Assembly (NCBI RefSeq): GCF_011742555.1
Contig: NZ_JAAQQR010000003.1
Coordinates: 186,001 to 250,000 of the forward strand
Reading direction: 5' to 3'
From: Luteibacter jiangsuensis
GTDB lineage: Bacteria > Pseudomonadota > Gammaproteobacteria > Xanthomonadales > Rhodanobacteraceae
Length of the DNA stretch: 64,000 nucleotides
Positions 18,480-32,701 of the stretch are shown piece after piece. Both the position numbers and the translations under genes were made by a program. The notes under the pieces were generated by a model that saw only the letters and a program-made list of their open reading frames with translations, made no database searches and was not told where the DNA came from. Numbering within the stretch: position 1 is the first letter of the stretch; each line of letters begins with the position of its first letter.

Positions 18480-20657
18480 TCAGCAGTCGCGGAGCGTGAA
18501 GCTCGCGGCGTCGCCTGTGGCGGACGAGCCGGCGATCCACACCAGGAATTCGCCGGGCTCGGCTTCGAACGTACGGCCGTCGCGATGCGTAAACGCGAGA
18601 TCGGCACGCGTGAGTTCGAATGCCACGTCTTCCGAGGCACCGGGACCGAGCAGGATCTTCCGGAAGGCTTTCAGTTCGCGCACAGGGCGAACGCGACTGG
18701 CCACACGGTCGTGAATGTAGAGCTGCACCACTTCTTCGCCGGCGATGTCGCCGGTATTGGTCACGTTTGCGGACACGACGATGGTCTCGTCCCAGCCCAC
18801 CGTCGCGGCGACGCGCGGTGCGGAGTAGGCGAAGCGCGTATAGCTGAGACCATGCCCGAACGGGTACAGCGGCTCGAAGGTGACTTCCCGGTAGCGTGCC
18901 TTGAAGGCGGGCGGCTGGTCGGGCAGTTCGGGGCGACCCGTCCGCGGATGGTTGTAGAAATAAGGCTGTTGCCCGGAGTCCTGGGGAAAACTGACCGGCA
19001 GGCGCCCGGACGGGTTGTAGTCGCCGAACAGCACGTCGGCAATGGCGGGGCCGGTCTGGCTCCCGAGGAACCAGGTCACGAGGATGGCACCGGCTTCGCG
19101 CACCGCGCCGGTCAGTGCGAGCGCCCGTCCGTTCTTCAACAGCACGACGACGGGCTTGCCGGTGGCGGCCACCGCCTCGGCCAGTGCCTGCTGCGCGGCC
19201 GGCACGACGATCTGTGTGCGCGACTGCGCTTCGCCGGAGTAGTTCTGCGGTTCGCCGATGGCCAGAAGCACGACGTCGGCGCGGCGCGCGGCGGCCACGG
19301 CCGCCTCGATGCCGCCCTCCAGCGGAGCCTCCAGGCCCGAGCCGGCCACCACTTCCAGTGTCGAGGCGTCCGCCAGGGCGTCGCGCAGGCCGCGCTCGAT
19401 GGTCACGTGCCGGGCCGCGTCACCGAACAGCGTCCAACAGCCTTCGAGGTTTTCGGTATCGGCGCCGAATGGGCCAATCAACGCGATCTTCTGGCCGTTC
19501 TTGCGCAACGGCAGCACGCCCTCGTTCTTCAGCATGACGATGGATCGGCGCGCGGCGTCGCGTGCCAGCGCCGCATGATCGGCATCGTGCGAACCGTCGG
19601 CCTCCGCGGCGGGATCGAGCGAACGATACGGGTTGTCGAAGAGGCCGATGGCATCCTTCACCGCGAGCACGCGGCGCACGCCTTCGTCGAGCACGTCCAT
19701 CGGCACCGCGCCGGATTCGACGAGCGCGGGCAAGTGTGCTGCGTAGAAGCCGCTTTGCATGCTCATGTCCACGCCGGCCAGGAACGCGAGCCGTGTCGCG
19801 TCGCGTTCGTCTTCGGCGAAACCATGCGCGATGAGTTCCATGTCGGCCGTGTAATCCGACACAACGAGCCCGCGAAACCCCCACTCGCCACGGAGGATGT
19901 CCGTCATCAACTCGCGATTGGCCGATGCCGGCACGCCGTTGATGTCGTTGAACGCGCTCATGAAGGTCAGCGCGCCCGCGTCCAGCGCGGCCTTGAACGG
20001 TGGCAGGTGGACGTCGCGCAGCGTCTGCGGCGAGATGTCCACGGTGTTGTATTCCATGCCGGCCGCGACGGCGCCGTAGGCGGCAAAATGCTTGGGCGTG
20101 GCCAGCAGCGAGTCCCCGGCCGTGAGGTCCGGACCCTGGAAGCCACGCACGCGGGCGGCGGCGAACGCCGAACCCAGCACCACGTCCTCCCCCGCCCCCT
20201 CGGCGACGCGGCCCCAGCGCTGGTCGCGCGCGATGTCCACGGCCGGGGCGAACGTCCAGTGCACGCCCGCGGCGGTGGCCTCGATGGCCGTGGCCCGCGC
20301 GGTGCGCTCGGCCAGGTCCGGCTCGAACGAGGAGGCTTCGGCCAGGGGGATGGGGAATACGGTGCGCATGCCGTGGATGACGTCGGCGCCGAACAGGAGC
20401 GGGATGCCGAGCCGGCTCTCCTCCACGGCCACGCGCTGCGCCTCGCGACCCTCGGCAGCGCCCACGCCGTTGAACAGCGCGCCCACGCGTCCTGCCCGGA
20501 CCTGTTCGAGAACGTCGGCTGCCCCCCGTGCGTTCACCTCCGGATTGATGTCCGGGGCGAACGGACGCACGGCATCGGCGAACACGCCCAACTGGCCCAC
20601 CTTCTCGTCGAGGGTCATTCGGGAGATCAGGTCTTCGATGCGGGGATTGCGGTTCAT
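18480..20657 (-). CDS. glycoside hydrolase family 3 beta-glucosidase
   Basis: The 725-residue enzyme has the standard GH3 order. An N-terminal TIM barrel contains 'KHFAAYG' (189-195) and the nucleophile Asp268 in GLVVSDYT. A sandwich domain with 'LLKNGRALAL' follows, then a C-terminal fibronectin III-like domain ('VSANVTNTGDIAGEEVVQLYIHD'). It should release glucose or a related sugar from beta-linked oligosaccharides. I chose ATG 20657 (MNRNPRIEDL), because the 27 residues upstream are Arg/Pro-rich and lack signal character. No signal peptide is visible, so it may act in the cytoplasm, unlike many BglX relatives. A LacI-type palindrome and a second palindrome lie in its promoter region. Confidence 0.9.
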   Translation of the reverse strand: MNRNPRIEDLISRMTLDEKVGQLGVFADAVRPFAPDINPEVNARGAADVLEQVRAGRVGALFNGVGAAEGREAQRVAVEESRLGIPLLFGADVIHGMRTVFPIPLAEASSFEPDLAERTARATAIEATAAGVHWTFAPAVDIARDQRWGRVAEGAGEDVVLGSAFAAARVRGFQGPDLTAGDSLLATPKHFAAYGAVAAGMEYNTVDISPQTLRDVHLPPFKAALDAGALTFMSAFNDINGVPASANRELMTDILRGEWGFRGLVVSDYTADMELIAHGFAEDERDATRLAFLAGVDMSMQSGFYAAHLPALVESGAVPMDVLDEGVRRVLAVKDAIGLFDNPYRSLDPAAEADGSHDADHAALARDAARRSIVMLKNEGVLPLRKNGQKIALIGPFGADTENLEGCWTLFGDAARHVTIERGLRDALADASTLEVVAGSGLEAPLEGGIEAAVAAARRADVVLLAIGEPQNYSGEAQSRTQIVVPAAQQALAEAVAATGKPVVVLLKNGRALALTGAVREAGAILVTWFLGSQTGPAIADVLFGDYNPSGRLPVSFPQDSGQQPYFYNHPRTGRPELPDQPPAFKARYREVTFEPLYPFGHGLSYTRFAYSAPRVAATVGWDETIVVSANVTNTGDIAGEEVVQLYIHDRVASRVRPVRELKAFRKILLGPGASEDVAFELTRADLAFTHRDGRTFEAEPGEFLVWIAGSSATGDAASFTLRDC

Positions 20658-20735
20658 GGGGCTGGCCTTGGGACGAGGCGACGGGGGAATACGCGTCAAG
20701 CGGACAAGGATACCGGCATCGGGTACGCAAGTGCG

Positions 20736-20766
20736 CACGTAAATGACGTTACAGGTAAACGTTTAC
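20736..20766. promoter_or_regulatory. operator cluster upstream of the GH3 gene
   Basis: GTAAACGTTTAC at 20755-20766 is a perfect 12-bp palindrome of the kind bound by LacI-family sugar repressors. Directly beside it, 20736-20755 holds ACGTAA-N5-CGTTAC, related to the stronger palindrome at 20877-20896. Both lie 79-109 bp before the GH3 start, within its likely promoter. No LacI gene is present in the window. Confidence 0.6.
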
Positions 20767-20876: not shown

Positions 20877-20896
20877 GACGTAACTATCGTTACGTC
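20877..20896. promoter_or_regulatory. 20-bp palindromic operator in the GH3/ABC-exporter divergent region
   Basis: Perfect 8-bp arms GACGTAAC and GTTACGTC flank a TATC spacer. The element lies about 98 bp upstream of the ABC ATPase start and 220 bp upstream of the GH3 start. It shares ACGTAA/GTTAC half-sites with 20736-20755, so one regulator may bind both. The rest of the gap 20767-20993 shows no gene. Confidence 0.6.
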
Positions 20897-20993: not shown

Positions 20994-21758
20994 ATGCAGT
21001 GCTTCACCCATCCAACGATCATCGAGATGCGAGGCGTCGGGAAAGCATTTCCCGCCGGCTCAGCCGACTGTCACGTGCTGACGGACATTCACCTGAATGT
21101 GCGGCAAGGCGAATTCGTCTCGGTGGCCGGACCTTCGGGCTGCGGCAAGACCACGCTCCTGTCGCTGATGGGTCTGCTGGACGTGCCGACGAAAGGCGAA
21201 CTGCGGTTCGCGGGTCAGCCGGTGCAGCATCTGGGGCGCGCGCAGCGTGCCATCCTGCGCAACAGGCACATCGGGTTCGTGTTCCAGGCTTCCAACCTTA
21301 TCGAGGATCTGAGCGTGGCGGAAAACGTTGCGCTGCCCCTCTCGTTCCGAAAGGGCATTTCGCGGCACGAGAGCCGGCGTCGTGTTCGGGATGCGCTGGC
21401 GGGCGTCGGCATGGCGCATCGCATGCGCTACTACCCGTCCCAACTCTCCGGTGGGCAGAAGCAACGAGTTGCCGTCGCGCGCGCGCTCGCCGGCAATCCG
21501 ACCATCCTGCTGGCGGACGAACCGACGGGAAACCTGGACCTCAGGAACGGCGAAGCCGTCATGTCGCTCTTCTCGCGCCTGCATGCGGAGGGGCGGACGA
21601 TCTGCATGGTGACTCACGACGAACGTTTTGGCGCCATGGCCGAGCGCACGGTGCGCCTGTTGGACGGACACGTCGTCGACGAGAGCACGCACCAGCAGCG
21701 GCTCGCCGAATCGGAATCGGGCCTCGACCAGTACAGTCTCGGCGAGCCCGTGCAGTGA
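20994..21758 (+). CDS. MacB-type ABC transporter ATP-binding protein
   Basis: The 254-residue nucleotide-binding subunit belongs to the MacB/LolD family. Walker A is GPSGCGKT, the signature is LSGGQKQR, Walker B is ILLADEPTGN and the switch His is in VTHDE. The family trait 'NLDLRNGEAVMSLF' is also present. I chose ATG 20994, preceded by GGAG about 9 nt upstream; the frame is open for another 850 codons upstream, but that is antisense to the GH3 gene. It overlaps the permease start (GTGA at 21755). In context it is most likely the exporter, or the self-protection pump, for the lanthipeptide encoded further downstream. Confidence 0.92.
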   Translation: MQCFTHPTIIEMRGVGKAFPAGSADCHVLTDIHLNVRQGEFVSVAGPSGCGKTTLLSLMGLLDVPTKGELRFAGQPVQHLGRAQRAILRNRHIGFVFQASNLIEDLSVAENVALPLSFRKGISRHESRRRVRDALAGVGMAHRMRYYPSQLSGGQKQRVAVARALAGNPTILLADEPTGNLDLRNGEAVMSLFSRLHAEGRTICMVTHDERFGAMAERTVRLLDGHVVDESTHQQRLAESESGLDQYSLGEPVQ

Positions 21759-24118
21759 AGTGGCGCCCGCAGGCTTCTCGCGACGCGCATGCGCTCGCGC
21801 GCTGGCCGGCCTTCATGTTGCTGGCTTCCGGAACGCTGTCGCTGGGAGTTGCCGCCGCGATCGGCGGGGTCACGCTGCTCGACGCCGTACTGCAACCCCC
21901 GCCTTGGCCGAACCACGAGCGGGTGGCGATTTACGGGCGCCGCACGCCCGACGACCCCATGCGCGCGATGTCGCCGCAACTGTACGATGCCGTTGGCCAA
22001 CCGGCGATGGTGCTGTCACGTGGGATCGCACGTATTCCCGAAACGGTGAACGTCGTTGCCGGCCGGCACACGGAAATCCTTCGCGCCCAGCGGGTCGACA
22101 CCGGATTCCTTCACACGCTCGGCGTGGCTCCCTCAGGCACCACGGACGGCGGGATGGGCCATGGCGCCCTGGTGTCTGAAGCCCTGCGCGCTCGCCTGGC
22201 GGACATCGCACCGCAGGTTGTCGGACAGACGATCGTCGTCGACGGGTCGAATGTCGAGATTCGCGGTGTGCTGCCTGCGGAATACCGCTTCTTCTCCGAC
22301 GTCGATTTGCTCCTTTCGCTCGACCCGTTGAACGGCTCGACGGCGCTGGATGGCAACATGACGGCCGTGGCGCTGTTGTCGTCCGCGAGCGACATCCGCC
22401 CGTTTTCGGCCCGCGTGCTGCGTGCCGCCCGCGACATTGGCCCGGACCCGCATGGTGAGGACGTCCGATGGAGCGGCGCCACTCCGATAGACGATCTGGT
22501 GGCGTACCGCGCGCGCGCGCCCCTATGGGGCTTTGCGCTGTCGGGCGTGCTCGTACTTGCCGTGGCCGGGATGAATGTCTCGCAGCTGATATCGACGCGC
22601 ATGTTCGCTCGCATCGACGAAACGGCGGTGAAGATGGTGTTCGGTGCGAGGTGGGAACCCTGGCGATCGGCGGGGTTCGATGCCCTGGCCGTGGGCGTCC
22701 TCGGCTTCGCCGTGGGCCTGCCCGGCGGTACGGCGCTGGTGCGCCTGTTCAAGCCATTCATTCCTCCCGCATGGCTGGTCTCGGCGGCCCCCATGGCGCC
22801 CGGCTGGCGCGTGCTGTCGGTGGTGGCGGCGATGACGTTCGTCGTGCTCGTCCTGGCGGCCGTCATCGGGGCGGCACGCGTGATGGGTCGCCTGCGCCAT
22901 CGGGAGCGCACGATGATGAGCGGCGCCCCGGCCATGCGTGTGACAACCGGCTGGACGGCTTCCGCACTGGTTCTCGCCCAGGTCGCGTTGGCGACCTTGC
23001 TCGTCTCATACGGCATGATCGCAGTGTCGCGGGCATGGCTACTGGCCGGTACATCTCCGGGTTTCGACACTGCGGACGGCGTGGTGGTGGAACTGCATCC
23101 CCCGATGGGCGCATATCCGGAGTTGAGCAGTGTCGTTCGGCTGGCCGATGCCATCCGTTCGACGGTATCGGCATTGCCGGGCGTGGAAGCGGTGGGTTGG
23201 TCGAGCGACGTCCCGACGGGAAGGGGTTTCCGCATGCCCTTCCTGCGTCGCGGCGGCGGCAGCCGGTTCATACCCTTCGCGGTGGTTTCGCCTGGCGGAA
23301 TCGAGGCCATGGGCCTGCGGTTGCTCGCCGGCCGAACCGTCGTCGAAAGCGACGGCTCCGATGCCCATCCCGTCGCCATGGTGAACGAAGCCTACGTGCG
23401 TGCGTTCGGCAGCCGCGGCATCGGCGGTTTCGTCCGGCCAGCGGGCCGGGGCGCGCGCGAGGCCCGTATCGTCGGCATTGTCGGCAACACCCGGCGCGAC
23501 GCGAAAGGCGCTGCGGCACCGGCGGTCTATGTTCCTCTCGCGCAGGTCGATCCGCACGTCTTCGCGTTGATGCGCCAGCTGCAACCCTTGTTCGTCGCGA
23601 TCCGGGGGCCCGCCGCCGCCACGGTTGCGAGCGACGCACTGCCGTCGATCGTCGGCGAAGCCGCACCTTCGCTTGCGCTGTCGCCGCCCGTTCCGCTCGA
23701 ACGGATCGCCGACGCGCCGCTGGCAGGAGCACACCGGGATGTCGCACTCTTTGCCACGCTTTCAGGCGTTGCCGTAAGCCTGACCGCGGCGGGCCAGTAT
23801 GCGATGCATTCCGTGGAGGTCGCCGCGTCACGCTACGCGTTGAGCCTGCGCATGGCTCTTGGTGCCACCCCCGGCCAGCTCCTTGCCCATGTGGTCCGGA
23901 AGGCGTTCCGCGTGGCCCTGAGCGGTATCGTCCTGGGCCTGTTCGGCACGTGTGTCATGCAGCACTTCTCGCTCGGAATGGTCATGCCCGCAGGTACCGC
24001 TATCGGCGTGTCCATGGCTGCGGCCCTTGTCATGGTGTTCGGGACCCTGGTTGCCGTGGCCGCGCCCGCGAGCCATGCGGCGGCGCTCGAGCCTTGGCGA
24101 GTGCTCCGCAGCGATTGA
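21755..24118 (+). CDS. ABC transporter permease with two FtsX domains (MacB/ADOP type)
   Basis: The 787-residue permease appears to have eight membrane helices: one near the N-terminus, a group of three around residues 260-380, one opening the second half, and three at the C-terminus. Periplasmic domains lie between. Two FtsX-like units are recognisable, and the protein ends in the family signature 'EPWRVLRSD'. This is the duplicated-permease layout seen in ADOP-type transporters, which work with a separate MacB-like ATPase. The start is a GTG overlapping the ATPase stop. The sigma-54-type regulator gene follows after 19 nt, so exporter and two-component system are probably one transcript. 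Confidence 0.88.
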   Translation: MKWRPQASRDAHALARWPAFMLLASGTLSLGVAAAIGGVTLLDAVLQPPPWPNHERVAIYGRRTPDDPMRAMSPQLYDAVGQPAMVLSRGIARIPETVNVVAGRHTEILRAQRVDTGFLHTLGVAPSGTTDGGMGHGALVSEALRARLADIAPQVVGQTIVVDGSNVEIRGVLPAEYRFFSDVDLLLSLDPLNGSTALDGNMTAVALLSSASDIRPFSARVLRAARDIGPDPHGEDVRWSGATPIDDLVAYRARAPLWGFALSGVLVLAVAGMNVSQLISTRMFARIDETAVKMVFGARWEPWRSAGFDALAVGVLGFAVGLPGGTALVRLFKPFIPPAWLVSAAPMAPGWRVLSVVAAMTFVVLVLAAVIGAARVMGRLRHRERTMMSGAPAMRVTTGWTASALVLAQVALATLLVSYGMIAVSRAWLLAGTSPGFDTADGVVVELHPPMGAYPELSSVVRLADAIRSTVSALPGVEAVGWSSDVPTGRGFRMPFLRRGGGSRFIPFAVVSPGGIEAMGLRLLAGRTVVESDGSDAHPVAMVNEAYVRAFGSRGIGGFVRPAGRGAREARIVGIVGNTRRDAKGAAAPAVYVPLAQVDPHVFALMRQLQPLFVAIRGPAAATVASDALPSIVGEAAPSLALSPPVPLERIADAPLAGAHRDVALFATLSGVAVSLTAAGQYAMHSVEVAASRYALSLRMALGATPGQLLAHVVRKAFRVALSGIVLGLFGTCVMQHFSLGMVMPAGTAIGVSMAAALVMVFGTLVAVAAPASHAAALEPWRVLRSD

Positions 24119-24137
24119 AACGTGGGGAGTGGCAGGT

Positions 24138-25514
24138 ATGTCCAGAGGTCAAGAATCCGCAGCGCCGGTGCTCGTCGTGGACGATCATCCGGACGTCCGA
24201 CTTGCGCTACGCATCCTGTTGCAATCGGAAGGTATTCCGTCGGTCGACGTCGGCTCTGCGGCCGCGGCGCTGGACGCCGTGGCACGGACCGAATTCGCCT
24301 GTGCCGTCGTCGATCTCAACTATGCATCGGACACGACGTCCGGGCTCGAAGGTCTGGAACTCGTCACCCGTCTACGTCAGGAAGACCCGGAACTGCCGGT
24401 GGTGACCATGACGGCCTGGGGCAGCATCGAGATCGCCGTGCGCGCCATGCGCCTCGGCGCATCCGATTTCATCGAGAAGCCCTGGAACAATGCTCATATG
24501 GTCCACACCATCCGCACACAGATCGCCGTGCGCCGGATGCAGGAGGAAAACCGGCGATTGCGGGCGGAGGCTGCATTGTCGCGGGAGGCTGGCGACATGC
24601 TCCGGATCGGCGAGTCCTCGTCCATGCGGCGCGTATTGGACCTGATCGGCCGCATAGCCGGCGGCGAGGCCAACGTGCTTGTGCTCGGCGAGAACGGTAC
24701 CGGCAAATCGCTGGTGGCGCGCGAGATCCACGCCTTGTCGCCCCGCGCGGAGCACCCGGTCATTCGCGTCGACATGGGTACGCTGCCGGAGTCGCGCTTC
24801 GCCGAAGAAATGTTCGGAGAAGATCTGCCTACTTCACGTCCCGGCCGGTTCGAACTGGCTCACGGAGGCAGCCTCATCCTCGAGGAAGTGGGAAGCATCC
24901 ACCCGCTCCAGCAGGCGAAACTGCTTCGCGTCGTGGAAGAGGGGGAACTTGAACGTTGCGGCGGCATGCGCACGCGGCGCGTGGACGTACGTGTCATATC
25001 CACGTCGAATGCCGATCTGGAAGCTGCCATCCGCCATGATCGCTTCCGTCGCGACCTGCTCTACCGGCTCAATGCCATGCAGGTGCGCCTGCCGCCACTG
25101 CGCGAACGGCAGGAAGACATCGTACCCCTGGCCCGTCACTTCATCCTTCGCGAATGCCGTCGGCGGGGACGTGGGGCGATGCTGCTGACGCCGTCGGCCG
25201 AGAGGGCACTTCGTGGCTATGCGTGGCCCGGAAACGTGCGCGAACTCGAACACACGATCGAACGCGTGGTGCTGTTGACCCCGCATGACGGGATCGATGC
25301 CGATGCCCTGTCGCTGCAACGACGCGCGGACGAACCCGTGGTGCTCGACAGCCTCACTCTCCCCGAGGCCGAAGAACTGCTGATCAAGCAGGCGCTCGAA
25401 CGCCATGGCCACAATCTGCAAAGGGCGGCCGAGGCCTTGGGTATCTCCAGGCAGGCCCTGTATCGCCGTCTCGAAAAGTTGCGGGCCCGGACCTTTCTGG
25501 CGCCGATCACCTGA
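24138..25514 (+). CDS. NtrC-family response regulator lacking the GAFTGA loop
   Basis: The 458-residue protein has a receiver domain (phospho-acceptor Asp59 in AVVDL, acidic pair Asp15-Asp16, Lys in EKPW). An AAA+ domain follows with Walker A GENGTGKS (184-191), then a Fis-type helix-turn-helix ('NLQRAAEALGISRQALYRRL'). Two key features are altered. The segment where GAFTGA should lie reads MFGEDLPTSRPGRFELA, so the sigma-54 contact loop is gone. The Walker B Asp is Glu249 (LILEEVGS). Such regulators cannot be expected to activate sigma-54 and probably work on sigma-70 promoters. The ATG has AGG just upstream. It pairs with the next kinase gene and probably controls the lanthipeptide promoter. 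Confidence 0.9.
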   Translation: MSRGQESAAPVLVVDDHPDVRLALRILLQSEGIPSVDVGSAAAALDAVARTEFACAVVDLNYASDTTSGLEGLELVTRLRQEDPELPVVTMTAWGSIEIAVRAMRLGASDFIEKPWNNAHMVHTIRTQIAVRRMQEENRRLRAEAALSREAGDMLRIGESSSMRRVLDLIGRIAGGEANVLVLGENGTGKSLVAREIHALSPRAEHPVIRVDMGTLPESRFAEEMFGEDLPTSRPGRFELAHGGSLILEEVGSIHPLQQAKLLRVVEEGELERCGGMRTRRVDVRVISTSNADLEAAIRHDRFRRDLLYRLNAMQVRLPPLRERQEDIVPLARHFILRECRRRGRGAMLLTPSAERALRGYAWPGNVRELEHTIERVVLLTPHDGIDADALSLQRRADEPVVLDSLTLPEAEELLIKQALERHGHNLQRAAEALGISRQALYRRLEKLRARTFLAPIT

Positions 25515-25548
25515 AAGCTCAATCAACCTCCCTTTCGTCGGGATCACC

Positions 25549-26877
25549 TTGAACCTCGACGCGCGTTCGACCAACCTGGCCTCCGGAGCGATGCCTGCCG
25601 TCGGTATCGTGCTTTTGCCCGTGGCTGCGATGGGCGGAACGCTCGTCGTCGTCGAGGGCCTGTCCTGGCAACTTCGGCTGGGCCTTTTCAGCTTGGGCAT
25701 GTCGCTCACCCTCGCACTGGCCTGGGTCATTGGAGGCCGCATGTTGCGCACGCTGGGCACGATAACCGAACTGCTCGGCGCGCTTAGCGAGGGAGACTTT
25801 TCGCTCCGGGGACACGTACGGCCGGGAAGCGATCCCCTGCAGGGGATCGTGGCAGACGTGAACCTGCTGTCCGACGCCCTGAGTAAAGCACGGCGCAAGC
25901 GCACGGAAACCTCGCGCTTCCTGAGCAAGACGGTCACGGCCCTGAAGGACCCGGTGTTCGTTGCAGATGATGAAGGGAAACTGCGTCTGATCAACGCGGC
26001 CGCGCGAACCTTGATCGACGCGGAGAGCGTTGCCGTGCTCGGCCGCGATCTCGACTCCCTAGGGCTCACGGAGGCTTTCAATACTCCGGACAACGCCATC
26101 TTCCATGGTCGCTTCCCGGGTGGCGAAGGGCGATGGGCCGTGCGCCAGGTGGCATGGCGCAGTGATGGCCGCGAGCATCGCCTGGTCATGCTGCGTGACC
26201 TCAGCGCGGCGCTGGGGCAGGAAGAACGCCGCGCATGGCAAAGGCTCATCCGCGTGCTGAGCCACGAGCTCAACAATTCACTGGCTCCGATCGCATCGTT
26301 GGCGGGCAGCCTCGCCAGCCTTCTGGAGGATCGACCCGCAGAGGAAGTGCGCACCGATTTGCACATCGGTCTCGACGTTATCGGGCGGCGCGCCGATTCG
26401 CTTGCGCGTTTCCTTTCCGGATATGGCAGGCTGGCCCGCTTGCCGCCGCCGCAATCGACTTTGTTCCGCCTCGATCTCGCATTGTCCCGGCTGGCGCTAC
26501 TGGAGCGCCGGATCGATGTCGTCGTCCTCGGCAGGGAGCCTGTGGTGCTCTACGGCGACGAAGACCAGTTGGGCCAGGCATTCATCAATCTCGTGCGCAA
26601 CGCCGCGGAAGCGGCACTGCCGGTTCGTGGCGGAGTGCGCCTGGATTGGGTCACCGAGGGGCGGCGGATCCGGGTGGTTGTGGAGGATGACGGCATGGGT
26701 CTGCCTGATAGCGACGCATTGTTTGTGCCGTTCTTCACCACCAAGCCCGATGGATCGGGCATTGGTCTCAGCCTGACACGTTTGATCGTCGAAGCTCACG
26801 GTGGCACGGTCGAACTGACGAACCGGCCCGGCGCTCGCGGCGCGATCGCCACGGTACGGCTTCCGTTGCCCTATTGA
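25549..26877 (+). CDS. NtrY-like sensor histidine kinase
   Basis: The 442-residue membrane kinase has two hydrophobic helices near the N-terminus separated by a very short periplasmic loop (VEGLSWQLRLG). HAMP-like and PAS-like regions follow. The kinase core has an H-box LSHELNNSLAPI (His239), N-box LVRNAAEAA, G1 DDGMGL, F-box FFTTKPDGSG and G2 GIGLSL. The family usually starts with a short basic segment before the first helix, which supports the TTG at 25549 (34 nt after the regulator stop). An ATG at 25591 is the alternative but would clip that segment. The tiny sensor loop suggests it senses events in or near the membrane. Confidence 0.88.
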   Translation: MNLDARSTNLASGAMPAVGIVLLPVAAMGGTLVVVEGLSWQLRLGLFSLGMSLTLALAWVIGGRMLRTLGTITELLGALSEGDFSLRGHVRPGSDPLQGIVADVNLLSDALSKARRKRTETSRFLSKTVTALKDPVFVADDEGKLRLINAAARTLIDAESVAVLGRDLDSLGLTEAFNTPDNAIFHGRFPGGEGRWAVRQVAWRSDGREHRLVMLRDLSAALGQEERRAWQRLIRVLSHELNNSLAPIASLAGSLASLLEDRPAEEVRTDLHIGLDVIGRRADSLARFLSGYGRLARLPPPQSTLFRLDLALSRLALLERRIDVVVLGREPVVLYGDEDQLGQAFINLVRNAAEAALPVRGGVRLDWVTEGRRIRVVVEDDGMGLPDSDALFVPFFTTKPDGSGIGLSLTRLIVEAHGGTVELTNRPGARGAIATVRLPLPY

Positions 26878-26885
26878 GCCTGCGC

Positions 26886-26921
26886 TGTCCGTTGCCGGAC
26901 ACGACTGTCCGTTTCCGGACA
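26886..26921. promoter_or_regulatory. tandem TGTCCG-N4-CGGACA operators before the lanthipeptide precursor
   Basis: Two 16-bp palindromes, 26886-26901 (spacer TTGC) and 26906-26921 (spacer TTTC), have identical 6-bp arms and centres exactly 20 bp apart, about two helical turns, so both face the same side of DNA. They begin 9 bp after the kinase stop codon. The obvious candidate ligand is the Fis-type response regulator encoded at 24138-25514. Only this pair was seen in the window. Confidence 0.75.
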
Positions 26922-27002
26922 TGTCGGTGACCGTTTTCGATACGGACCTTGCAAAAAATTGAATTTCAGGCGACCGAAAACGAAATCCCCGCGAATTTCA
27001 TC

Positions 27003-27032
27003 TTGAGCATGCAAGTATCCGGCGCCTAGATT
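27003..27032 (+). promoter_or_regulatory. possible sigma-70 promoter of the lanthipeptide genes
   Basis: TTGAGC (27003-27008) and TAGATT (27027-27032) are separated by 18 bp and would start transcription near 27039, about 38 nt before the precursor ATG. The match is moderate (4 of 6 in each box). The paired operators would then lie about 125 and 145 bp upstream. Confidence 0.4.
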
Positions 27033-27076
27033 CGCGCGGCGCAAAGGGCGCGCACGAATCGATCATCGAGGACGAC

Positions 27077-27211
27077 ATGAACCGGATACTGGAACTGCAA
27101 CTCCTGCAAGTCGACAACGCGTCGCAGAACGAGACGAACGAAACCAACTACAGCACCTGCAGCCACAGTGCCTGCTCGACGGCGAACGGTGACGGATTCG
27201 AGGATCTCTGA
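27077..27211 (+). CDS. lanA: class III lanthipeptide precursor peptide
   Basis: This 44-residue peptide begins MNRILELQLLQVDN, containing ILELQ, the conserved leader box recognised by class III LanKC enzymes. A polar Asn/Glu/Thr-rich linker follows (residues 14-24). The core starts around Tyr25 and contains STCSHSACST. Ser26, Ser29 and Cys33 form the exact Ser-x-x-Ser-x-x-x-Cys pattern that yields a labionin (or Dha plus lanthionine). Thr27, Cys28, Ser31, Ser34 and Thr35 offer further sites. The acidic tail ends GFEDL. GAGGACGAC precedes the ATG. It lies 68 nt before the LanKC gene. Small peptides are easily miscalled, but the leader box, core motif and position agree. Confidence 0.85.
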   Translation: MNRILELQLLQVDNASQNETNETNYSTCSHSACSTANGDGFEDL

Positions 27212-27217
27212 GACGCG

Positions 27218-27244
27218 GGGACGGTGTCGGGAGAGCACCGTCCC
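27218..27244 (+). terminator. intercistronic hairpin between precursor and synthetase
   Basis: A perfect 9-bp stem (GGGACGGTG with CACCGTCCC) with a 9-nt loop starts 6 nt after the precursor stop. There is no T-tract, so it is more likely a partial terminator or an RNA-stabilising structure giving more precursor than enzyme, as in many peptide operons. The synthetase start follows 35 nt later behind its own GGGGAG. Confidence 0.65.
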
Positions 27245-27279
27245 GGTCGCAGGGCGAGGACTTTCGGGGAGCGCGCAGC

Positions 27280-29955
27280 ATGGAGCGGTACACGGAACTG
27301 TTGCAGTACACCGCCGTCGATCGGGAATTCTTCGAACCCTACGGCAACCGCGAGATCGACCTCGCCGACTTCGCAGAGCCCGTGCAGCGCATCCTTCCCG
27401 CCACGTGGACGATGCAACGCGCCGGCATATGGATGCACTGCCAGCCACCCGGGGTCGATCTACCCGACCAAGGCTGGAAAATACATGTCTCCAGCGTGGC
27501 ATCCACCGCACGTATCGTGCTGTCGATTGCCGCGGCGACGCTCGCGGTCTCGCAGACCGCCTTCAAGTTCGCTGCCGACGCGCGCATGCTCGCCGCGATC
27601 AATGGAAAGCGCTGGCCGCGCGGCGGATCCGGGAAGTTCATCACCGTGTATCCGGTCAACGTGGATGACTTCCGCCGCATCATCGACGACCTGCATGTGG
27701 CGCTGTCAGGCTACGTGGGGCCTTACGTCCTCACCGACCGACGCTACCGCGATTCGCGCGTGCTCCATTACCGCTATGGCGGTATCGCGGGCCCATACCG
27801 CACTACCGCGGACGGTCGGCGTGAGTATGTTCTCCGCTCACCCGACGGGGGCCTGGAGCCAGACGAGCGCAAGCCACACTTCCACCTTCCCACCTGGCTG
27901 CGCGATCCGTTTCCCGAGGAAGGCACCGACACCAGAGAGCGGCACGCCCACCTGGGTGGCGGCCGCTTCCGGGTTCGCCACGCGATTTCCTTTTCATCCG
28001 CCGGCGGCATCTACCTCGGTGACGATCTCGACGCGGGCCGCCGCGTGATCATCAAGGAAGCGCGCCCTTACATAGGCGGCGGCGACACGGCGGTGGCGAT
28101 GCTCCGCAAGGAATTCCGTCTGCTGCGCCATCTGGCGCCGCACGGAGTCGCCCCCTTGCCCGTGGCGCACTTCCGGGACTGGGAGCACAGTTATCTCGTC
28201 GAGGAATACATCGAGGGCGATACGCTTCGCCACTGGCTTGCACGACGGTATCCGTGGTTGAAAACGCGGACGACGCGTGATGACGTACGCCGTTACCTCG
28301 GGGAATTCGCCGCGGTTTTCACGCGGTTCGCCGAGGCGCTCCAGCTGGCGCACGGCGCAGGCGTGTCGCTGGGCGACCTTTCGTTCCACAACTGTATCGT
28401 CACGCCACAGGGCGACATTCGCCTCATCGATCTGGAGACAGCGGTCGAGGAGGGCCTGGATCTTCCGGCGGACGTACGCACGCCCGGCTTCGCTTCGCCA
28501 CGCCCGCTGCGCGATCATCCTGACGGCGCGCGCGCCGAGGACGCCTACGCTTTCGGCGCCAACCTGCTGGCCGCGATCATGCCGATGAACGCCATGCTGC
28601 CCCTGGATCGTCAGGCAGCGGCGCGATTCGTGCGCCGACTGAGCGAAGACCTCGGTTATCCGCACGAACTCGGCGCCATCATCGCGTCCCTGCTGGACAC
28701 CGAGGCCACGAGGCGCACCTCGCCGATAGTGGCGATGGAGCGCCTGCGGGCCGCACTGGACGCCCCGTCGACGGCCCGCCCCACCGTGAGCCACGCACCC
28801 CCGCCGGACCATGCGGATGCCCTCTTCGCCTACGTCGACGCGATGGCGAGACGGGCGCGGCCGGATCGGTATGTCCCCGCAGGGCCCGAAGTGTTCCAGA
28901 CCCACCCCTGGGGCGTGGCGCATGGCGCGGCAGGTGTGCTGCACGCCTACCTGCGTGGCGGCCGGAAGGCGCCGGAGGGACTGCTCTCGTTCGTTGCCGA
29001 TGGCGCACGGCGGAGGCGTGACCGCGGCACGAATCTCATGCACGGCGACGCAGGCATCGCATGGGTGTTGTTCGAGGCGGGCGAGGGCGAGCTGGCGGCG
29101 GATATGCTGCGCGACCGGATGCCGGACACCGGCCTTTGCGAGCGTGCCGGATGGCACGACGGTCTGGCCGGGTGGGGTCTTTCACGGATCAAGGCATGGC
29201 GCGAGACGGCGGAAGAAGGCTTTCTTGCCGCCGCCGCCGAGGCGGGCGAAGTGCTGCTCCGGACAGCGGTGTCCGGTGACGGTACCTTGTGCTGGCCAGT
29301 GGGCGACGTGCAGCCGGTCGGTCTTGGTCATGGGGCCACCGGGGTTGCGCTCTTCCTTCTCCATCTGCACGTTGCCACGGGCGACGAGCGCTTCATGCGT
29401 GCCGCCGACGCCGCGCTGTCGTTCGACCTTGCCCAGCGCGGCAGCAATCCCGATGGCGATCCCACGTGGCCGAAGCAGGTCGGCGGCGCCACGACGTTCC
29501 CCTATCTCCGGCACGGTACGGCAGGCATTGTCGCGGTGGCGGCGCGCTTCCATGCATGCACCGGTGATGCGCGGTACCGTCATGCCGTCCGCGGCGCCGA
29601 GGCCGATCTGATGCGCCGGCATGCGATGTCACCGGGCCTGTTCGAGGGCCTTGCCGGCATTGGCGAAACCCTGCTGGATCTTGCAGGGATGTTTCCGGAC
29701 AGCGCCGCAGGGTATCTGGCAGCCGCGTGTCACATCGCACGCGGCATCGAGCCATTCCTCGTCCCGCGGCACGAAGGGCTTGCCGTGCCAGGCGTCGAAC
29801 TGCTGCGCCTGAGTTGCGATTTCGCCACCGGCAATGCAGGCGTGGGTGCCTTCTTCGATCGCCTCCATCGCGGTGGTCCTGCGTCCTTCATGCTCGACGA
29901 GCACCTGTCGCTCGCTGCATGGAGGCCGGCGGCAGGCGTGGTGTTGAACTCATAG
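27280..29955 (+). CDS. lanKC: class III lanthionine synthetase (lyase-kinase-cyclase)
   Basis: The 891-residue enzyme dehydrates Ser/Thr in the precursor and closes thioether or labionin rings. An N-terminal lyase-like domain (to about 210) opens with the family-typical 'YTAVDREFFEPYGNREID'. The kinase domain follows: Lys259 in VIIKEA, catalytic loop GDLSFHN (Asp366, Asn371) and IDLE (Asp384). The C-terminal LanC-like cyclase keeps GLGHGATG, but the zinc ligands are gone: the WCxG cysteine is Arg744 (YLRHGTAG) and the CHG pair is Phe788-Glu789 (GLFEGLAGIG). That places it in class III rather than IV. The ATG follows GGGGAGCGCGCAGC. No leader peptidase gene is adjacent. The end overlaps the convergent TonB receptor by 6 nt. 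Confidence 0.93.
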   Translation: MERYTELLQYTAVDREFFEPYGNREIDLADFAEPVQRILPATWTMQRAGIWMHCQPPGVDLPDQGWKIHVSSVASTARIVLSIAAATLAVSQTAFKFAADARMLAAINGKRWPRGGSGKFITVYPVNVDDFRRIIDDLHVALSGYVGPYVLTDRRYRDSRVLHYRYGGIAGPYRTTADGRREYVLRSPDGGLEPDERKPHFHLPTWLRDPFPEEGTDTRERHAHLGGGRFRVRHAISFSSAGGIYLGDDLDAGRRVIIKEARPYIGGGDTAVAMLRKEFRLLRHLAPHGVAPLPVAHFRDWEHSYLVEEYIEGDTLRHWLARRYPWLKTRTTRDDVRRYLGEFAAVFTRFAEALQLAHGAGVSLGDLSFHNCIVTPQGDIRLIDLETAVEEGLDLPADVRTPGFASPRPLRDHPDGARAEDAYAFGANLLAAIMPMNAMLPLDRQAAARFVRRLSEDLGYPHELGAIIASLLDTEATRRTSPIVAMERLRAALDAPSTARPTVSHAPPPDHADALFAYVDAMARRARPDRYVPAGPEVFQTHPWGVAHGAAGVLHAYLRGGRKAPEGLLSFVADGARRRRDRGTNLMHGDAGIAWVLFEAGEGELAADMLRDRMPDTGLCERAGWHDGLAGWGLSRIKAWRETAEEGFLAAAAEAGEVLLRTAVSGDGTLCWPVGDVQPVGLGHGATGVALFLLHLHVATGDERFMRAADAALSFDLAQRGSNPDGDPTWPKQVGGATTFPYLRHGTAGIVAVAARFHACTGDARYRHAVRGAEADLMRRHAMSPGLFEGLAGIGETLLDLAGMFPDSAAGYLAAACHIARGIEPFLVPRHEGLAVPGVELLRLSCDFATGNAGVGAFFDRLHRGGPASFMLDEHLSLAAWRPAAGVVLNS

Positions 29956-32256
29956 GTGAAACTTTGCCTCGACCAGCCAGGTTCGGGACGGGTAGGGGTA
30001 GTACACGTAGTAGCGCCGGTTGGTGAGGTTATCCACGCCTGCGCCGAGGTCCACGTGGTCGTTCGCTTTCCAGGTCACCTTGGCGTCGAAGGTCAGGAAG
30101 TCGCTTGCGCCGCCGAATGTGTCGGGGTTCACGTCGCTGTGGTCGAGGGTGTTGTACTGCCGCCCGGAGTAGCGCCCCGCCAGGGTGAGTGCCAGGCGTT
30201 CGGTCGCGCGCCAGGTGGCCACCAGGTTCGCGCGCCAGCGCGGGATACGGTAGAACTGCTTGCCTTCGGAGGCGGGGTTGCGGCGATTGCGTACCGTGGT
30301 CGCCTGGGTATAGGCCGCGTTCGCCGTGAGGTCGAAGCCCTGCCAAAGCACATCGCGCGCATCGTAGCTGGCTTCGGCACCGCGGGTCCGCACCAGCCCC
30401 ACGTTCTGCACGTTGGTGACGTTGGGAAACACGGTGGTGTCGGTCTGGCTGAAGAGCGTGTTCCTCGTGTCGCTGCGGAACACGCTGAAACGTGCCACGC
30501 CGTTCTCGCGATACCACTCCGCCGACAGCTCGCGCGACAGGTCGTTCTCCGGCTTCAGGTTCGGATCGTTGTTCACGAGCGCGATGCCGTTGAACGTGCC
30601 CTGGAACAGCTCGTTGACGGTGGGGAAACGGTACGCGCGGGCCGCGGACAGGCGCAATAGCACAGTGTCGCTGGCGGACCACGCCAGCGAGGCTTTCGGC
30701 GAGGTGTGCGATTCCTTGCGTTCCGGGTAGCCGATGCGCGCCGTCGCCGTCGAACGCATGCCACCGAAGGCGCGCCACTGCTCGTAGCGCGCACCCACGG
30801 TGAGTCGCCAGCGCTCCGCCAGCTGCCATGCATCCTGCAGGTAGACGGCCTGGGTCTGCGTGCTGCCGCCATTGCTTGCGGTGAGCGGACCGGCGGCCCC
30901 GTTGCGCCACGCATCCAGCGAATAACTGGCGTTTGCCAGCCGGTATCCATCGTAGTGGTAACCGAAACTCACGGTATGCGTGTTCGTTCCCGTTTCCGTC
31001 GGTGTGTGGCTGGCGCGCAGGTCCAACGTACGCCAGCGGCTGCCGTCACCCGCCGTGAGCAAGCCCACGTCGTCGTAGGTCACTGCGGAGGCGACACGGT
31101 CGCGATTCCGGTCCATGTCGAAGTACGACACGTTGCCCTCGACGTTCCAGCCAGAGTCCTTATGCGTGCCCAGCGAGAGGCCATAAAGGTAGTTGCGGCC
31201 CTGACGCGTGCTCGGCGCGAAGTAGTTCGCCGGCAGCGTGTATTGCCTGCCGTCGATCGTGACCGGGCCCGACCACACGGGCTGTCCCTGCGCGTCGCGC
31301 AGGAACGTGTCGGTACGGTGCGACAGATCCTGCTTCCAGTAGCCCGCCGTGAATGCGCCGGTAAGTTCGTTGGTGAAGTCGTAGGTGAGGCGCACATGCG
31401 CTTCGTCCTGGCTCGTGGCTTCCTGTCCCTCGCTGTTGATGCCGACCACCTGCCGGGGCAACCCGTTGGCGCCGGTATCGGCGATCGCTCCCGTCACGGG
31501 GCGGGCAAGACCCGGGCGCGCCGAGGTGGACTGCGTGGCGTACACCAGCGGCTGGCCGTTCGCCTTCAGGTGCGACACGCCGACGAGGAAGGCGAAGCGA
31601 CCCGAGCGGTTGCCGAGGGTGGCCGCCTGGCGGCTGCCGCCAAAGTCGCGGTCCACGCCGTATGTGTCGACGTGCTGGGTAAACGCCTGCGCCTCGGCGG
31701 TGACTTCGAGCCTGTCCGGCATGCGCGTGGTCATGAGCACGGTGGCGCCGATGGCGTTGCCCGGGTAGAGCGCGGAGTAGGCGCCGTAGATCACGTCGAC
31801 GCGCGCGAGGTTCCCCGGAAACGCCATGGACCAGCGCGGCGGGTTCGCCCAGTTGTTGCCGAGGAGGTTGGAGAGGAGCAGGCCGTCGAGGTAGACGAGT
31901 CCACGCGCGCTCTGCTGGTTGCTGGTGCCCCGTACGGAAAACGTGGCGTTTTCGTCACCGACGAAACGCTTCCGGATGCCGAAGGCGGGCAGGTACTTCA
32001 GGGCGTCCTCGGTATTGACGATGTTGAGATGGTCGAGCTTCGCCGCGCTGACGGTTTCCACTGCGGCCGGCATGTCGGAGTCGACGCTGCTCGCGGCATG
32101 CGTTGCCGAAACGCGTACCTCGCGTAACGTGGTGGCGCGCTGGGGATCGCTGGCTGGGTTATCGGGCTCGGCGGCATGTGCGGCGAGCGAGGTGGCGCCC
32201 ATGGCACAGGCGATGGCGCGCGCAAGCGCGCGCCCATGGAGGAAAGGCAAGGGCAT
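29950..32256 (-). CDS. TonB-dependent outer membrane receptor, probably copper-related
   Basis: The 768-residue receptor has a signal peptide ending AAHA, then a plug domain ('DALKYLPAFGIRKRFVGDENATFSVRG', with 'ARVDVIYGAYSALYPGNAIGATVLM'). A 22-strand-type barrel ends in the C-terminal aromatic signature (WLVEAKFHL). I chose ATG 32256, where the signal peptide begins; the upstream open frame is Arg/Asp/Pro-rich. The gene lies 43 nt behind a His-rich DUF2946 protein. In pseudomonads this pairing is found with OprC/NosA-like copper receptors, so copper is the best guess for the ligand. It converges on the LanKC gene and is on the opposite strand, so it is probably not part of the lanthipeptide locus. 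Confidence 0.88.
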   Translation of the reverse strand: MPLPFLHGRALARAIACAMGATSLAAHAAEPDNPASDPQRATTLREVRVSATHAASSVDSDMPAAVETVSAAKLDHLNIVNTEDALKYLPAFGIRKRFVGDENATFSVRGTSNQQSARGLVYLDGLLLSNLLGNNWANPPRWSMAFPGNLARVDVIYGAYSALYPGNAIGATVLMTTRMPDRLEVTAEAQAFTQHVDTYGVDRDFGGSRQAATLGNRSGRFAFLVGVSHLKANGQPLVYATQSTSARPGLARPVTGAIADTGANGLPRQVVGINSEGQEATSQDEAHVRLTYDFTNELTGAFTAGYWKQDLSHRTDTFLRDAQGQPVWSGPVTIDGRQYTLPANYFAPSTRQGRNYLYGLSLGTHKDSGWNVEGNVSYFDMDRNRDRVASAVTYDDVGLLTAGDGSRWRTLDLRASHTPTETGTNTHTVSFGYHYDGYRLANASYSLDAWRNGAAGPLTASNGGSTQTQAVYLQDAWQLAERWRLTVGARYEQWRAFGGMRSTATARIGYPERKESHTSPKASLAWSASDTVLLRLSAARAYRFPTVNELFQGTFNGIALVNNDPNLKPENDLSRELSAEWYRENGVARFSVFRSDTRNTLFSQTDTTVFPNVTNVQNVGLVRTRGAEASYDARDVLWQGFDLTANAAYTQATTVRNRRNPASEGKQFYRIPRWRANLVATWRATERLALTLAGRYSGRQYNTLDHSDVNPDTFGGASDFLTFDAKVTWKANDHVDLGAGVDNLTNRRYYVYYPYPSRTWLVEAKFHL

Positions 32257-32299
32257 GACAAAGGTCCAATGTCGTTGGCGTGGGTCGGGATCGGATCGA

Positions 32300-32701
32300 T
32301 CAGACTCGCGCGGACGGCGGACCTCGGGCGGGAGCATGGATGAGAGGGATGGACGGCGCGGCGCGCCCTGCCGGCGCGGCGCCCGGCATGTGTTTCAGCG
32401 GCTCGAGCGCATGACCGACGAAGACGCCGCCCGCCATCGCGGGCTGCTGCGCGAAGAGCGTGCAATAGCCGCAGGCGGCGTCGCAGTCCCCTCCGTTCCG
32501 CGGCGCTTCCGGCATGGACGCGTGATCCATGTCGTGGTGGTGCATGCCGGCCATGGGTGCGGACGCATGCGCATGCGCGTGCATCGCCATCGTGCCGAGC
32601 GCGCGCGACGTGGTGGGGGCGAGCACGATGAGCCAGGTGGCGACGAGCGCCATCCAGTTCCACCATGATGTTCGCGCCGGGCCTCGTCGCACCGGAATCA
32701 C
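32300..32701 (-). CDS. DUF2946 His/Met-rich small protein
   Basis: The 133-residue protein has an N-terminal hydrophobic helix (ALVATWLIVLAPTT). A metal-binding-looking stretch follows, rich in His and Met ('MAMHAHAHASAPMAGMHHHD'). The DUF2946 cysteine signature CDAACGYC sits in the middle. The family is of unknown function but is repeatedly found next to TonB-dependent copper receptors, and it may handle copper in the envelope. The predicted start is a GTG with GAGG directly in front, which is too close to be ideal; an ATG 16 codons in is an alternative. It leads the receptor gene in a two-gene unit. Confidence 0.75.
   Translation of the reverse strand: MIPVRRGPARTSWWNWMALVATWLIVLAPTTSRALGTMAMHAHAHASAPMAGMHHHDMDHASMPEAPRNGGDCDAACGYCTLFAQQPAMAGGVFVGHALEPLKHMPGAAPAGRAAPSIPLIHAPARGPPSARV

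What the first reader, a model, noticed from the sequence alone, without database searches (positions are those of the whole stretch)
20994..29955. Class III lanthipeptide locus in a gammaproteobacterial genome
ABC exporter, NtrC-like regulator, NtrY-like kinase, small precursor and LanKC lie in one direction with short gaps. The precursor leader box, core spacing and synthetase domain order all point to class III. Such clusters are best known from Actinobacteria, and this regulatory and export set differs from the textbook lab/ram layout. The product is likely a new labionin- or lanthionine-containing peptide.
Basis: partly seen in the sequence, partly recalled or inferred. Interest (0 to 1): 0.92.

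Follow-up and report, generated by a model that had tools for sequence, protein, structure and literature searches.

The report
Luteibacter class III lanthipeptide gene cluster
This stretch of a soil bacterium's chromosome encodes a small ring-forming peptide, the enzyme that makes its rings, a likely exporter, and what looks like its own private on-switch; the peptide type is known, but this bacterial group and this way of switching it on are little studied.

Summary
Confirmed. Window 20994-29955 (Luteibacter) holds an ABC ATPase, FtsX/ADOP-like permease, NtrC-type regulator, histidine kinase, 44-aa precursor and 891-aa synthetase. The synthetase passes NCBIfam's class III LanKC cut-off and fails the class IV one. 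LanKC occurs in 21 of 23 Luteibacter genomes; the same gene order recurs in all 21, each with a small precursor carrying S/T-x2-S-x2/3-C. Class III clusters in Luteibacter and Lysobacter are already in print as predictions, so the class call is not new.

What I add is regulation. The regulator lacks the sigma54-contact loop (GAFTGA) in 21 of 21. Upstream of the precursor lie TGTCCG-N4-CGGACA palindromes and a sigma70-like promoter; the 20-bp tandem (up to 2 mismatches) occurs once per genome in 18 of 21 carriers, only here, and in neither non-carrier. Most likely a private two-component system switches one lanthipeptide promoter through sigma70, beside a fast-diverging FtsX-type transporter for export, immunity or sensing. 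Chemistry, binding and bioactivity are untested.

The parts
20994..21758 (+). ABC transporter ATPase (MacB/LolD/DevA type; best NCBIfam name is darobactin exporter DarD, below its cut-off)
21755..24118 (+). FtsX/MacB-type duplicated permease (ADOP-like), fastest-diverging long protein of the locus
24138..25514 (+). NtrC-type response regulator lacking the GAFTGA (sigma54-contact) loop
25549..26877 (+). Histidine kinase with two predicted membrane helices and a very short loop (start codon uncertain)
26886..26901 (+). Palindrome 1, TGTCCGTTGCCGGACA, proposed regulator site
26906..26921 (+). Palindrome 2, TGTCCGTTTCCGGACA, 20 bp after the first
27003..27008 (+). -35-like element TTGAGC of a sigma70-type promoter
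27027..27032 (+). -10-like element TAGATT (18 bp after the -35 element)
27077..27211 (+). Precursor peptide, 44 aa, leader MNRILELQ..., core ...NYSTCSHSACSTANGDGFEDL
27152..27175 (+). Core motif S-T-C-S-H-S-A-C (S-x2-S-x3-C)
27280..29955 (+). LanKC: class III lanthionine synthetase (lyase, kinase, zinc-less cyclase)

Best explanation
The locus makes and handles one class III lanthipeptide. LanKC binds the ILELQ leader of the 44-aa precursor, phosphorylates and eliminates Ser/Thr in the core, and closes a lanthionine or labionin ring across the S-x2-S-x3-C motif. An M1-type host aminopeptidase encoded elsewhere probably removes the leader, and the FtsX-type ABC transporter exports the product and/or protects from it. 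The kinase and regulator form a private two-component system. The regulator has lost the sigma54 loop, so it most likely binds the tandem palindromes at 26886-26921 and activates the sigma70-type promoter at 27003-27032 that drives precursor and LanKC. Shown by sequence: gene content, conservation, loss of the loop, the palindromes and their co-occurrence with the cluster. Inferred: every binding, catalytic, export and activation step.
For: LanKC over the class III cut-off and under the class IV one; phmmer matches solved class III synthetases, best over the lyase-kinase part. Lyase and kinase stretches conserved, and no W-C-x-G or C-H-G zinc motif, in 20 of 20 complete LanKCs (motifs and residue roles recalled). 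Same gene order in 21 genomes; precursor in 21 of 21, S/T-x2-S-x3-C in 20 and S-x2-S-x2-C in G014. GAFTGA loop absent in 21 of 21 cluster regulators but a GAFTGA-like loop kept in the 7 other hits at E<=1e-30 in the same genome. Tandem palindrome at the locus with up to 2 mismatches in 18 of 21 carriers, no such site elsewhere in any of the 23 genomes, none in the 2 non-carriers. TAGATT upstream of the precursor in 16 of 21 against 0.058 expected in mononucleotide shuffles; no position-conserved sigma54 site. Precedent for GAFTGA-less NtrC proteins at sigma70 promoters: PMC10274813, passages. Seven M1 peptidase hits in the genome.
Against: No chemistry or binding data. The precursor misses its NCBIfam cut-off by 0.7 bit. 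No leader protease, outer-membrane part or membrane-fusion protein was recognised among the six genes. G022 has only one palindrome, G018 one clean palindrome plus a weak one 23 bp off, and in G007 the two sit 19 rather than 20 bp apart. TAGATT is missing in 5 of 21, and my promoter scan found no TTG/-10 pair in 4 of 21. Leaders of G004 and G014 lack LxLQ. One conserved regulator and one conserved palindrome do not prove that the one binds the other. In G015 the ATPase gene appears frameshifted.
Confidence: 0.75

Rival explanations
1. Class III lanthipeptide locus with conventional sigma54 control: the regulator is a normal NtrC-type activator acting on a -24/-12 promoter.
For: Domain architecture Response_reg + Sigma54_activat + HTH_8; one 9-of-12 match CGATACGGACCTTGCA in the window.
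Against: GAFTGA loop deleted in 21 of 21. The window's match is not among the three best matches listed for G015, whose LanKC is 93% identical, and the best matches of the other genomes lie at differing distances (three best per genome seen). A sigma70-like -10 element is kept instead in 16 of 21.
Confidence: 0.07
2. The regulator represses rather than activates: the palindromes are operators that keep the peptide off until the kinase senses a signal.
For: Regulators of this loop-less kind can repress: PMC10274813 speaks of NtrC-repressed genes in Caulobacter (passages).
Against: The palindromes lie 105-141 bp before the -10 element, a position more usual for activation (general knowledge).
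Confidence: 0.2
3. The synthetase is a class IV (LanL) enzyme.
For: NF038150 LanL scores 563 bits.
Against: Below its cut-off of 650 and 142 bits under the class III model; no W-C-x-G or C-H-G motif in 20 of 20.
Confidence: 0.03
4. The ABC transporter/kinase/regulator set is a general peptide-stress module that merely sits beside the lanthipeptide genes.
For: A second ABC/NtrC/kinase set lies elsewhere in the genome with no LanKC match in the 17 kb fetched, so such sets exist on their own.
Against: In the two genomes without LanKC the best regulator hits are only 42-43% alike and keep the GAFTGA-like loop, the tandem palindrome is missing, and the site beside the TonB receptor holds other genes; at least one palindrome lies between kinase and precursor in each of 21 carriers.
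Confidence: 0.07

Closest known systems
Class III lanthipeptides (SapB, labyrinthopeptin, curvopeptin, NAI-112; recalled)
   Same: Tri-domain LanKC without zinc motifs, LxLQ-type leader, S-x2-S-x3-C core.
   Different: Gammaproteobacterial host; FtsX-type ABC transporter and a GAFTGA-less NtrC-type two-component system in place of the actinobacterial ram/lab layout (recalled); very short precursors (40-45 aa in the 21 genomes).
Class III lanthipeptide clusters predicted by antiSMASH in Luteibacter mycovicinus (PMC11165876) and Lysobacter (PMC11451712)
   Same: Same class, same or neighbouring family of bacteria; the Luteibacter ones are probably members of this same family (inference; those strains were not matched to my genomes).
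   Different: In the passages I saw they are listed as cluster types or counts; precursor sequences, regulation and site conservation were not in those passages.
GAFTGA-less NtrC-type proteins (Caulobacter and Rhodobacter capsulatus NtrC, Vibrio cholerae VspR; PMC10274813 passages)
   Same: NtrC architecture without the GAFTGA motif; reported to act on sigma70 promoters.
   Different: Those named serve other roles (nitrogen control for the NtrCs); this one has one strong tandem site per genome, at a lanthipeptide promoter.
BceRS-BceAB type peptide-sensing modules (recalled)
   Same: FtsX-type ABC transporter beside a kinase with two membrane helices and almost no outside loop.
   Different: Different permease and regulator families (recalled); flux sensing not tested.

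Membership tests
Class III lanthipeptide cluster | LanKC with lyase, kinase and LanC-like domains | tested here: met
   RamC_N, Pkinase, LANC_like; NF038151 704.8 > 575 bits
Class III lanthipeptide cluster | Cyclase domain without zinc ligands | tested here: met
   No W-C-x-G or C-H-G in 20 of 20 aligned LanKCs, judged by eye without a LanC in the alignment; G013 and G007 each have a lone Cys at one of the places (motifs recalled)
Class III lanthipeptide cluster | Precursor with LxLQ-type leader | tested here: met
   L-x-L-Q in 19 of 21, the window's among them; not in G004 and G014
Class III lanthipeptide cluster | Core with Ser/Thr-x2-Ser-x(2-5)-Cys | tested here: met
   21 of 21
Class III lanthipeptide cluster | Dehydration and (labionin/lanthionine) ring formation | not testable with these tools
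   needs co-expression and mass spectrometry
Class IV lanthipeptide (LanL) | Zinc-binding cyclase and LanL model score | tested here: not met
   563 < 650 bits; zinc motifs absent
sigma54 enhancer-binding protein (functional) | GAFTGA loop | tested here: not met
   absent in 21 of 21
sigma54 enhancer-binding protein (functional) | -24/-12 promoter at the target | tested here: not met
   no position-conserved site upstream of 21 precursors
Bce-like peptide sensing/resistance module | FtsX-type ABC transporter with an intramembrane-sensing kinase | tested here: inconclusive
   FtsX permease; two helices in 19 of 21 kinases by a hydropathy scan, window starts 22-33 residues apart in 18 of these 19; sensing not tested

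The most novel reading that the evidence does not exclude
A closed peptide circuit in a Gram-negative: the mature class III lanthipeptide, or its passage through the FtsX-type transporter, is the signal read by the loop-less membrane kinase, which then drives a one-promoter, sigma70-acting NtrC-type regulator to amplify that same peptide. The peptide would be a lineage-specific self-signal or territory marker rather than only an antibiotic, with permease and kinase co-diverging with the peptide core.
Probability: 0.22. Interest if true: 0.72.

Novelty: new variant of a known kind. Interest (0 to 1): 0.47.

Why it matters
In the papers my searches listed (one listed 12 of 19) and the passages I read I saw no class III lanthipeptide from a gammaproteobacterium described as structurally characterised; the library is open-licence papers only. 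This locus offers a genus-wide natural series: 21 precursors with diverse cores, a synthetase beside each, and a compact promoter with one predicted dedicated activator. The prediction that one regulator and one tandem site control one peptide is directly testable, and gives a handle for waking a cluster that may be silent in the laboratory. It would also extend the few known NtrC-type proteins that work without sigma54 into natural-product control.

Tried and rejected
Sigma54 promoter: first suspected from the NtrC-type regulator and a CGATACGGACCTTGCA match in the window; rejected because no such site keeps its place in relatives (an earlier scan used a wrong spacer and was replaced) and the regulator lacks GAFTGA.

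Class IV: considered because the LanL model scores 563 bits; rejected.

Non-Luteibacter LanKC-like loci: G141, G159, G206, G112 and a second copy in G007 (33-37% identity) show no match to the regulator or kinase (E<=1e-8) in the fetched stretches. Of the four scored (G159, G141, G206, G007 copy; G112 not scored) only G141 is over the class III cut-off and none over the class IV one. Not counted as part of this family.

Covariation of core with other proteins: permease, kinase and LanKC distances correlate weakly with core distance after allowing for regulator distance (partial r 0.25, 0.26, 0.30; permutation p 0.011, 0.008, 0.001), the ATPase does not (0.007, p 0.46), in 19 of 21 genomes (G015 dropped for the ATPase frameshift, G011 for its cut LanKC). 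Four tests, related genomes: suggestive only. The first run (20 genomes with G015 in) had a spoiled ATPase row.

Literature: lanthipeptide + response regulator + NtrC + MacB gave 0 papers. The searches were used as listings, from which one paper was opened.

Single palindrome in the window at up to 2 mismatches: 5 matches, 5.28 expected by chance, so a single weak site means nothing; only the two exact copies in tandem stand out.

Relatives in named genomes: one search found 7 loci, all Luteibacter; its search uses short exact patterns and finds close relatives only.
Full report
What is there. The window lies in a Luteibacter genome (own genome G000, contig C14). On the + strand there are an ABC ATPase (20994-21758), an FtsX/MacB-type duplicated permease (21755-24118), an NtrC-type response regulator (24138-25514), a histidine kinase (ending 26877, start uncertain), a 44-aa precursor (27077-27211) and an 891-aa LanKC (27280-29955). 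A TonB-receptor-like gene follows on the other strand (29950-32337), its end overlapping the LanKC stop by six bases, and a beta-glucosidase-like gene lies upstream (18480-20738, minus strand; both named by eye, not by a family search).

Class. LanKC scores 704.8 bits on NCBIfam's class III synthetase (cut-off 575) and 563 on class IV (cut-off 650), with RamC_N, protein kinase and LanC-like domains in that order. In the control genomes of the same model 1 of 14 passes the cut-off. By phmmer its best solved relatives are class III synthetases, among them 8sao/8sap/8sam and SalKC 9ugq. Across 20 complete Luteibacter LanKCs the lyase stretches (GWKIH, GKF, YRYG or YRFG) and kinase stretches (I/V-K-E-A-R, GD-x-S...N, D-L/M-E) are kept, while the places where LanC enzymes carry their zinc ligands hold PYLRHG-like and GLFEG-like residues; G013 and G007 each have one lone Cys there (residue roles and zinc motifs are recalled, and the comparison was by eye without a LanC in the alignment). 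The precursor gives 21.3 bits on the class III precursor model NF038154, just under its cut-off of 22.

Conservation. LanKC over the cut-off is found in 20 of 23 Luteibacter genomes, plus one split by a contig end (G011), so 21 of 23. In all 21 the ATPase, permease, regulator and kinase precede it in the same order, and a small precursor gene lies between kinase and LanKC. Nineteen carry L-x-L-Q in the leader; G004 and G014 do not. Twenty have S/T-x2-S-x3-C, and G014 has S-x2-S-x2-C. Shuffled C-terminal halves give the motif in 0.093 of peptides. A relative of the TonB receptor lies next to LanKC in 19 of the 20 carriers whose fetched stretch runs past LanKC (not in G020), and the beta-glucosidase is seen upstream in 15 of 21, the stretches being of limited length. 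In the two genomes without LanKC, relatives of the same receptor and beta-glucosidase are separated by other genes (one PhzF-like gene in G010, several unrelated ones in G016; named by eye), and no cluster protein matches between them at E<=1e-6 except a weak kinase match in G016 (30.7% over about 205 residues). So the cluster is an old resident of one site, absent in two species.

Spread outside the genus. With LanKC as query, 25 of 233 genomes of the family match at E<=1e-30: the 21 Luteibacter and 4 others at 33-37% identity. A class-wide sample found only the own genome at E<=1e-60 (1 of 369). This sample is thin: Lysobacter class III clusters exist in print. On plasmids the best-ranked hits are Deinococcus at 34-36% identity, so no recent donor is visible.

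Regulation. The regulator of the cluster has a shortened stretch where NtrC proteins carry GAFTGA, in 21 of 21 genomes. The seven other hits at E<=1e-30 in the same genome keep a GAFTGA-like loop, as do the four hits at E<=1e-60 in the two genomes without the cluster. Upstream of every precursor lies at least one TGTCCG-N4-CGGACA palindrome (at most 1 mismatch in 20 of 21, 2 in G020). A second copy, with up to 3 mismatches, sits 20 bp away in 18 genomes and 19 bp away in G007; G018 has only a weak one 23 bp away and G022 none. In whole genomes the exact 20-bp tandem with at most 2 mismatches occurs at the locus in 18 of 21 carriers (not in G007, G018, G022) and nowhere else in any of 23 genomes. 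All off-locus matches have 3 mismatches, and the reversed control pattern, allowed the same 3, also matches 0-5 times per genome. In the own genome the 36-base tandem is unique even at 3 mismatches. Downstream of the palindromes a sigma70-like promoter is kept: TTGAGC-N18-TAGATT in the window, TAGATT in 16 of 21 against 0.058 expected in mononucleotide shuffles; in 4 of 21 my scan found no TTG/-10 pair. No sigma54-type site keeps its place. GAFTGA-less NtrC proteins of Caulobacter and R. capsulatus are reported to act on sigma70 promoters (PMC10274813, passages). I therefore read the pair as a private two-component switch for the precursor-LanKC unit; binding itself is not shown.

Export, sensing and leader removal. 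The permease is the most divergent long protein of the locus (mean pairwise identity 0.39, against 0.72 ATPase, 0.69 regulator, 0.63 kinase, 0.60 LanKC; 19 of 21 genomes). Measured to the window alone it is 33-51% identical in 19 of the 20 other carriers and 89% in G015. A control permease from another ABC/NtrC/kinase set of the same genome is 76-97% identical in 19 of the 22 other genomes; in the other three (G004, G011, G014) the best hits are 40-55% and may not be orthologues. So the divergence is not simply what such permeases do. The kinase has two predicted helices in 19 of 21 (three in G002, one in G007), with window starts 22-33 residues apart in 18 of those 19, so almost no outside domain. 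Together with the FtsX transporter this resembles Bce-type sensing modules (recalled), which is the basis of the novel reading. No protease is among the six genes. M1 proteases encoded outside the cluster process other class III leaders (PMC10885120, passages), and the own genome has 7 M1 hits.

Novelty. Class III lanthipeptides are listed for four of the five Luteibacter mycovicinus strains in PMC11165876 Table 1 (passages), and 8 class III clusters with 3 unique precursors for Lysobacter in PMC11451712 (passages). PMC7268733 says most LanKCs and LanLs come from Actinobacteria and Firmicutes (section 9). PMC9576775 calls two class II products, one of them from Rhodanobacteraceae (rhodanocins), the first characterised lanthipeptides from gammaproteobacteria, and its three modified class III products come from Bacillus (two) and Myxococcus (passages). 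My searches for class III with Proteobacteria, Gammaproteobacteria or Gram-negative, and for lanthipeptide with Luteibacter, Xanthomonadales or Rhodanobacter, listed no paper that I could recognise as describing a characterised class III product from this class; most listed papers were seen as titles and abstract starts only, and the library is open-licence papers only. The enzyme and peptide are thus a new member of a known kind; the regulation and export set make it a new variant.

Noticed in passing
window 16684-18375 and 14999-16666 (minus strand): Two neighbouring hydrolase genes (49% alike) that look like secreted tripeptidyl-aminopeptidase-type enzymes (by eye) lie upstream; relatives lie near the cluster in six other genomes. 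A role in leader trimming was not tested.
   Followed up: partly
window 20755-20766 and 20877-20896: Palindrome GTAAACGTTTAC and inverted repeat GACGTAAC-TATC-GTTACGTC between the beta-glucosidase-like gene and the ABC ATPase; the first looks like a LacI-family operator (recalled).
   Followed up: no
L098 (own genome C20:80000-97000): A second ABC/NtrC-type regulator/kinase set, with GAYTGA kept in its regulator; its permease is 76-97% identical in 19 of 22 other Luteibacter genomes; no LanKC match beside it.
   Followed up: partly
L097 (G007:C1:2268000-2287000) and L093-L096: A second, distant LanKC-like enzyme in G007 and four in other genera of the family, of which one of four scored is over the class III cut-off; three of the loci (L093, L095, L096) seem by eye to carry FtsX-type permeases and an ABC exporter.
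   Followed up: partly
own genome C11:124620-125156: A weak LanKC-model hit in a 1028-aa frame (cyclase part only), as a class II LanM enzyme would give.
   Followed up: no
L030 (Luteibacter sp. SG786), ATPase gene: The transporter ATPase gene appears frameshifted while the permease, regulator, kinase, precursor and LanKC reading frames are open; real or sequencing error unknown.
   Followed up: no
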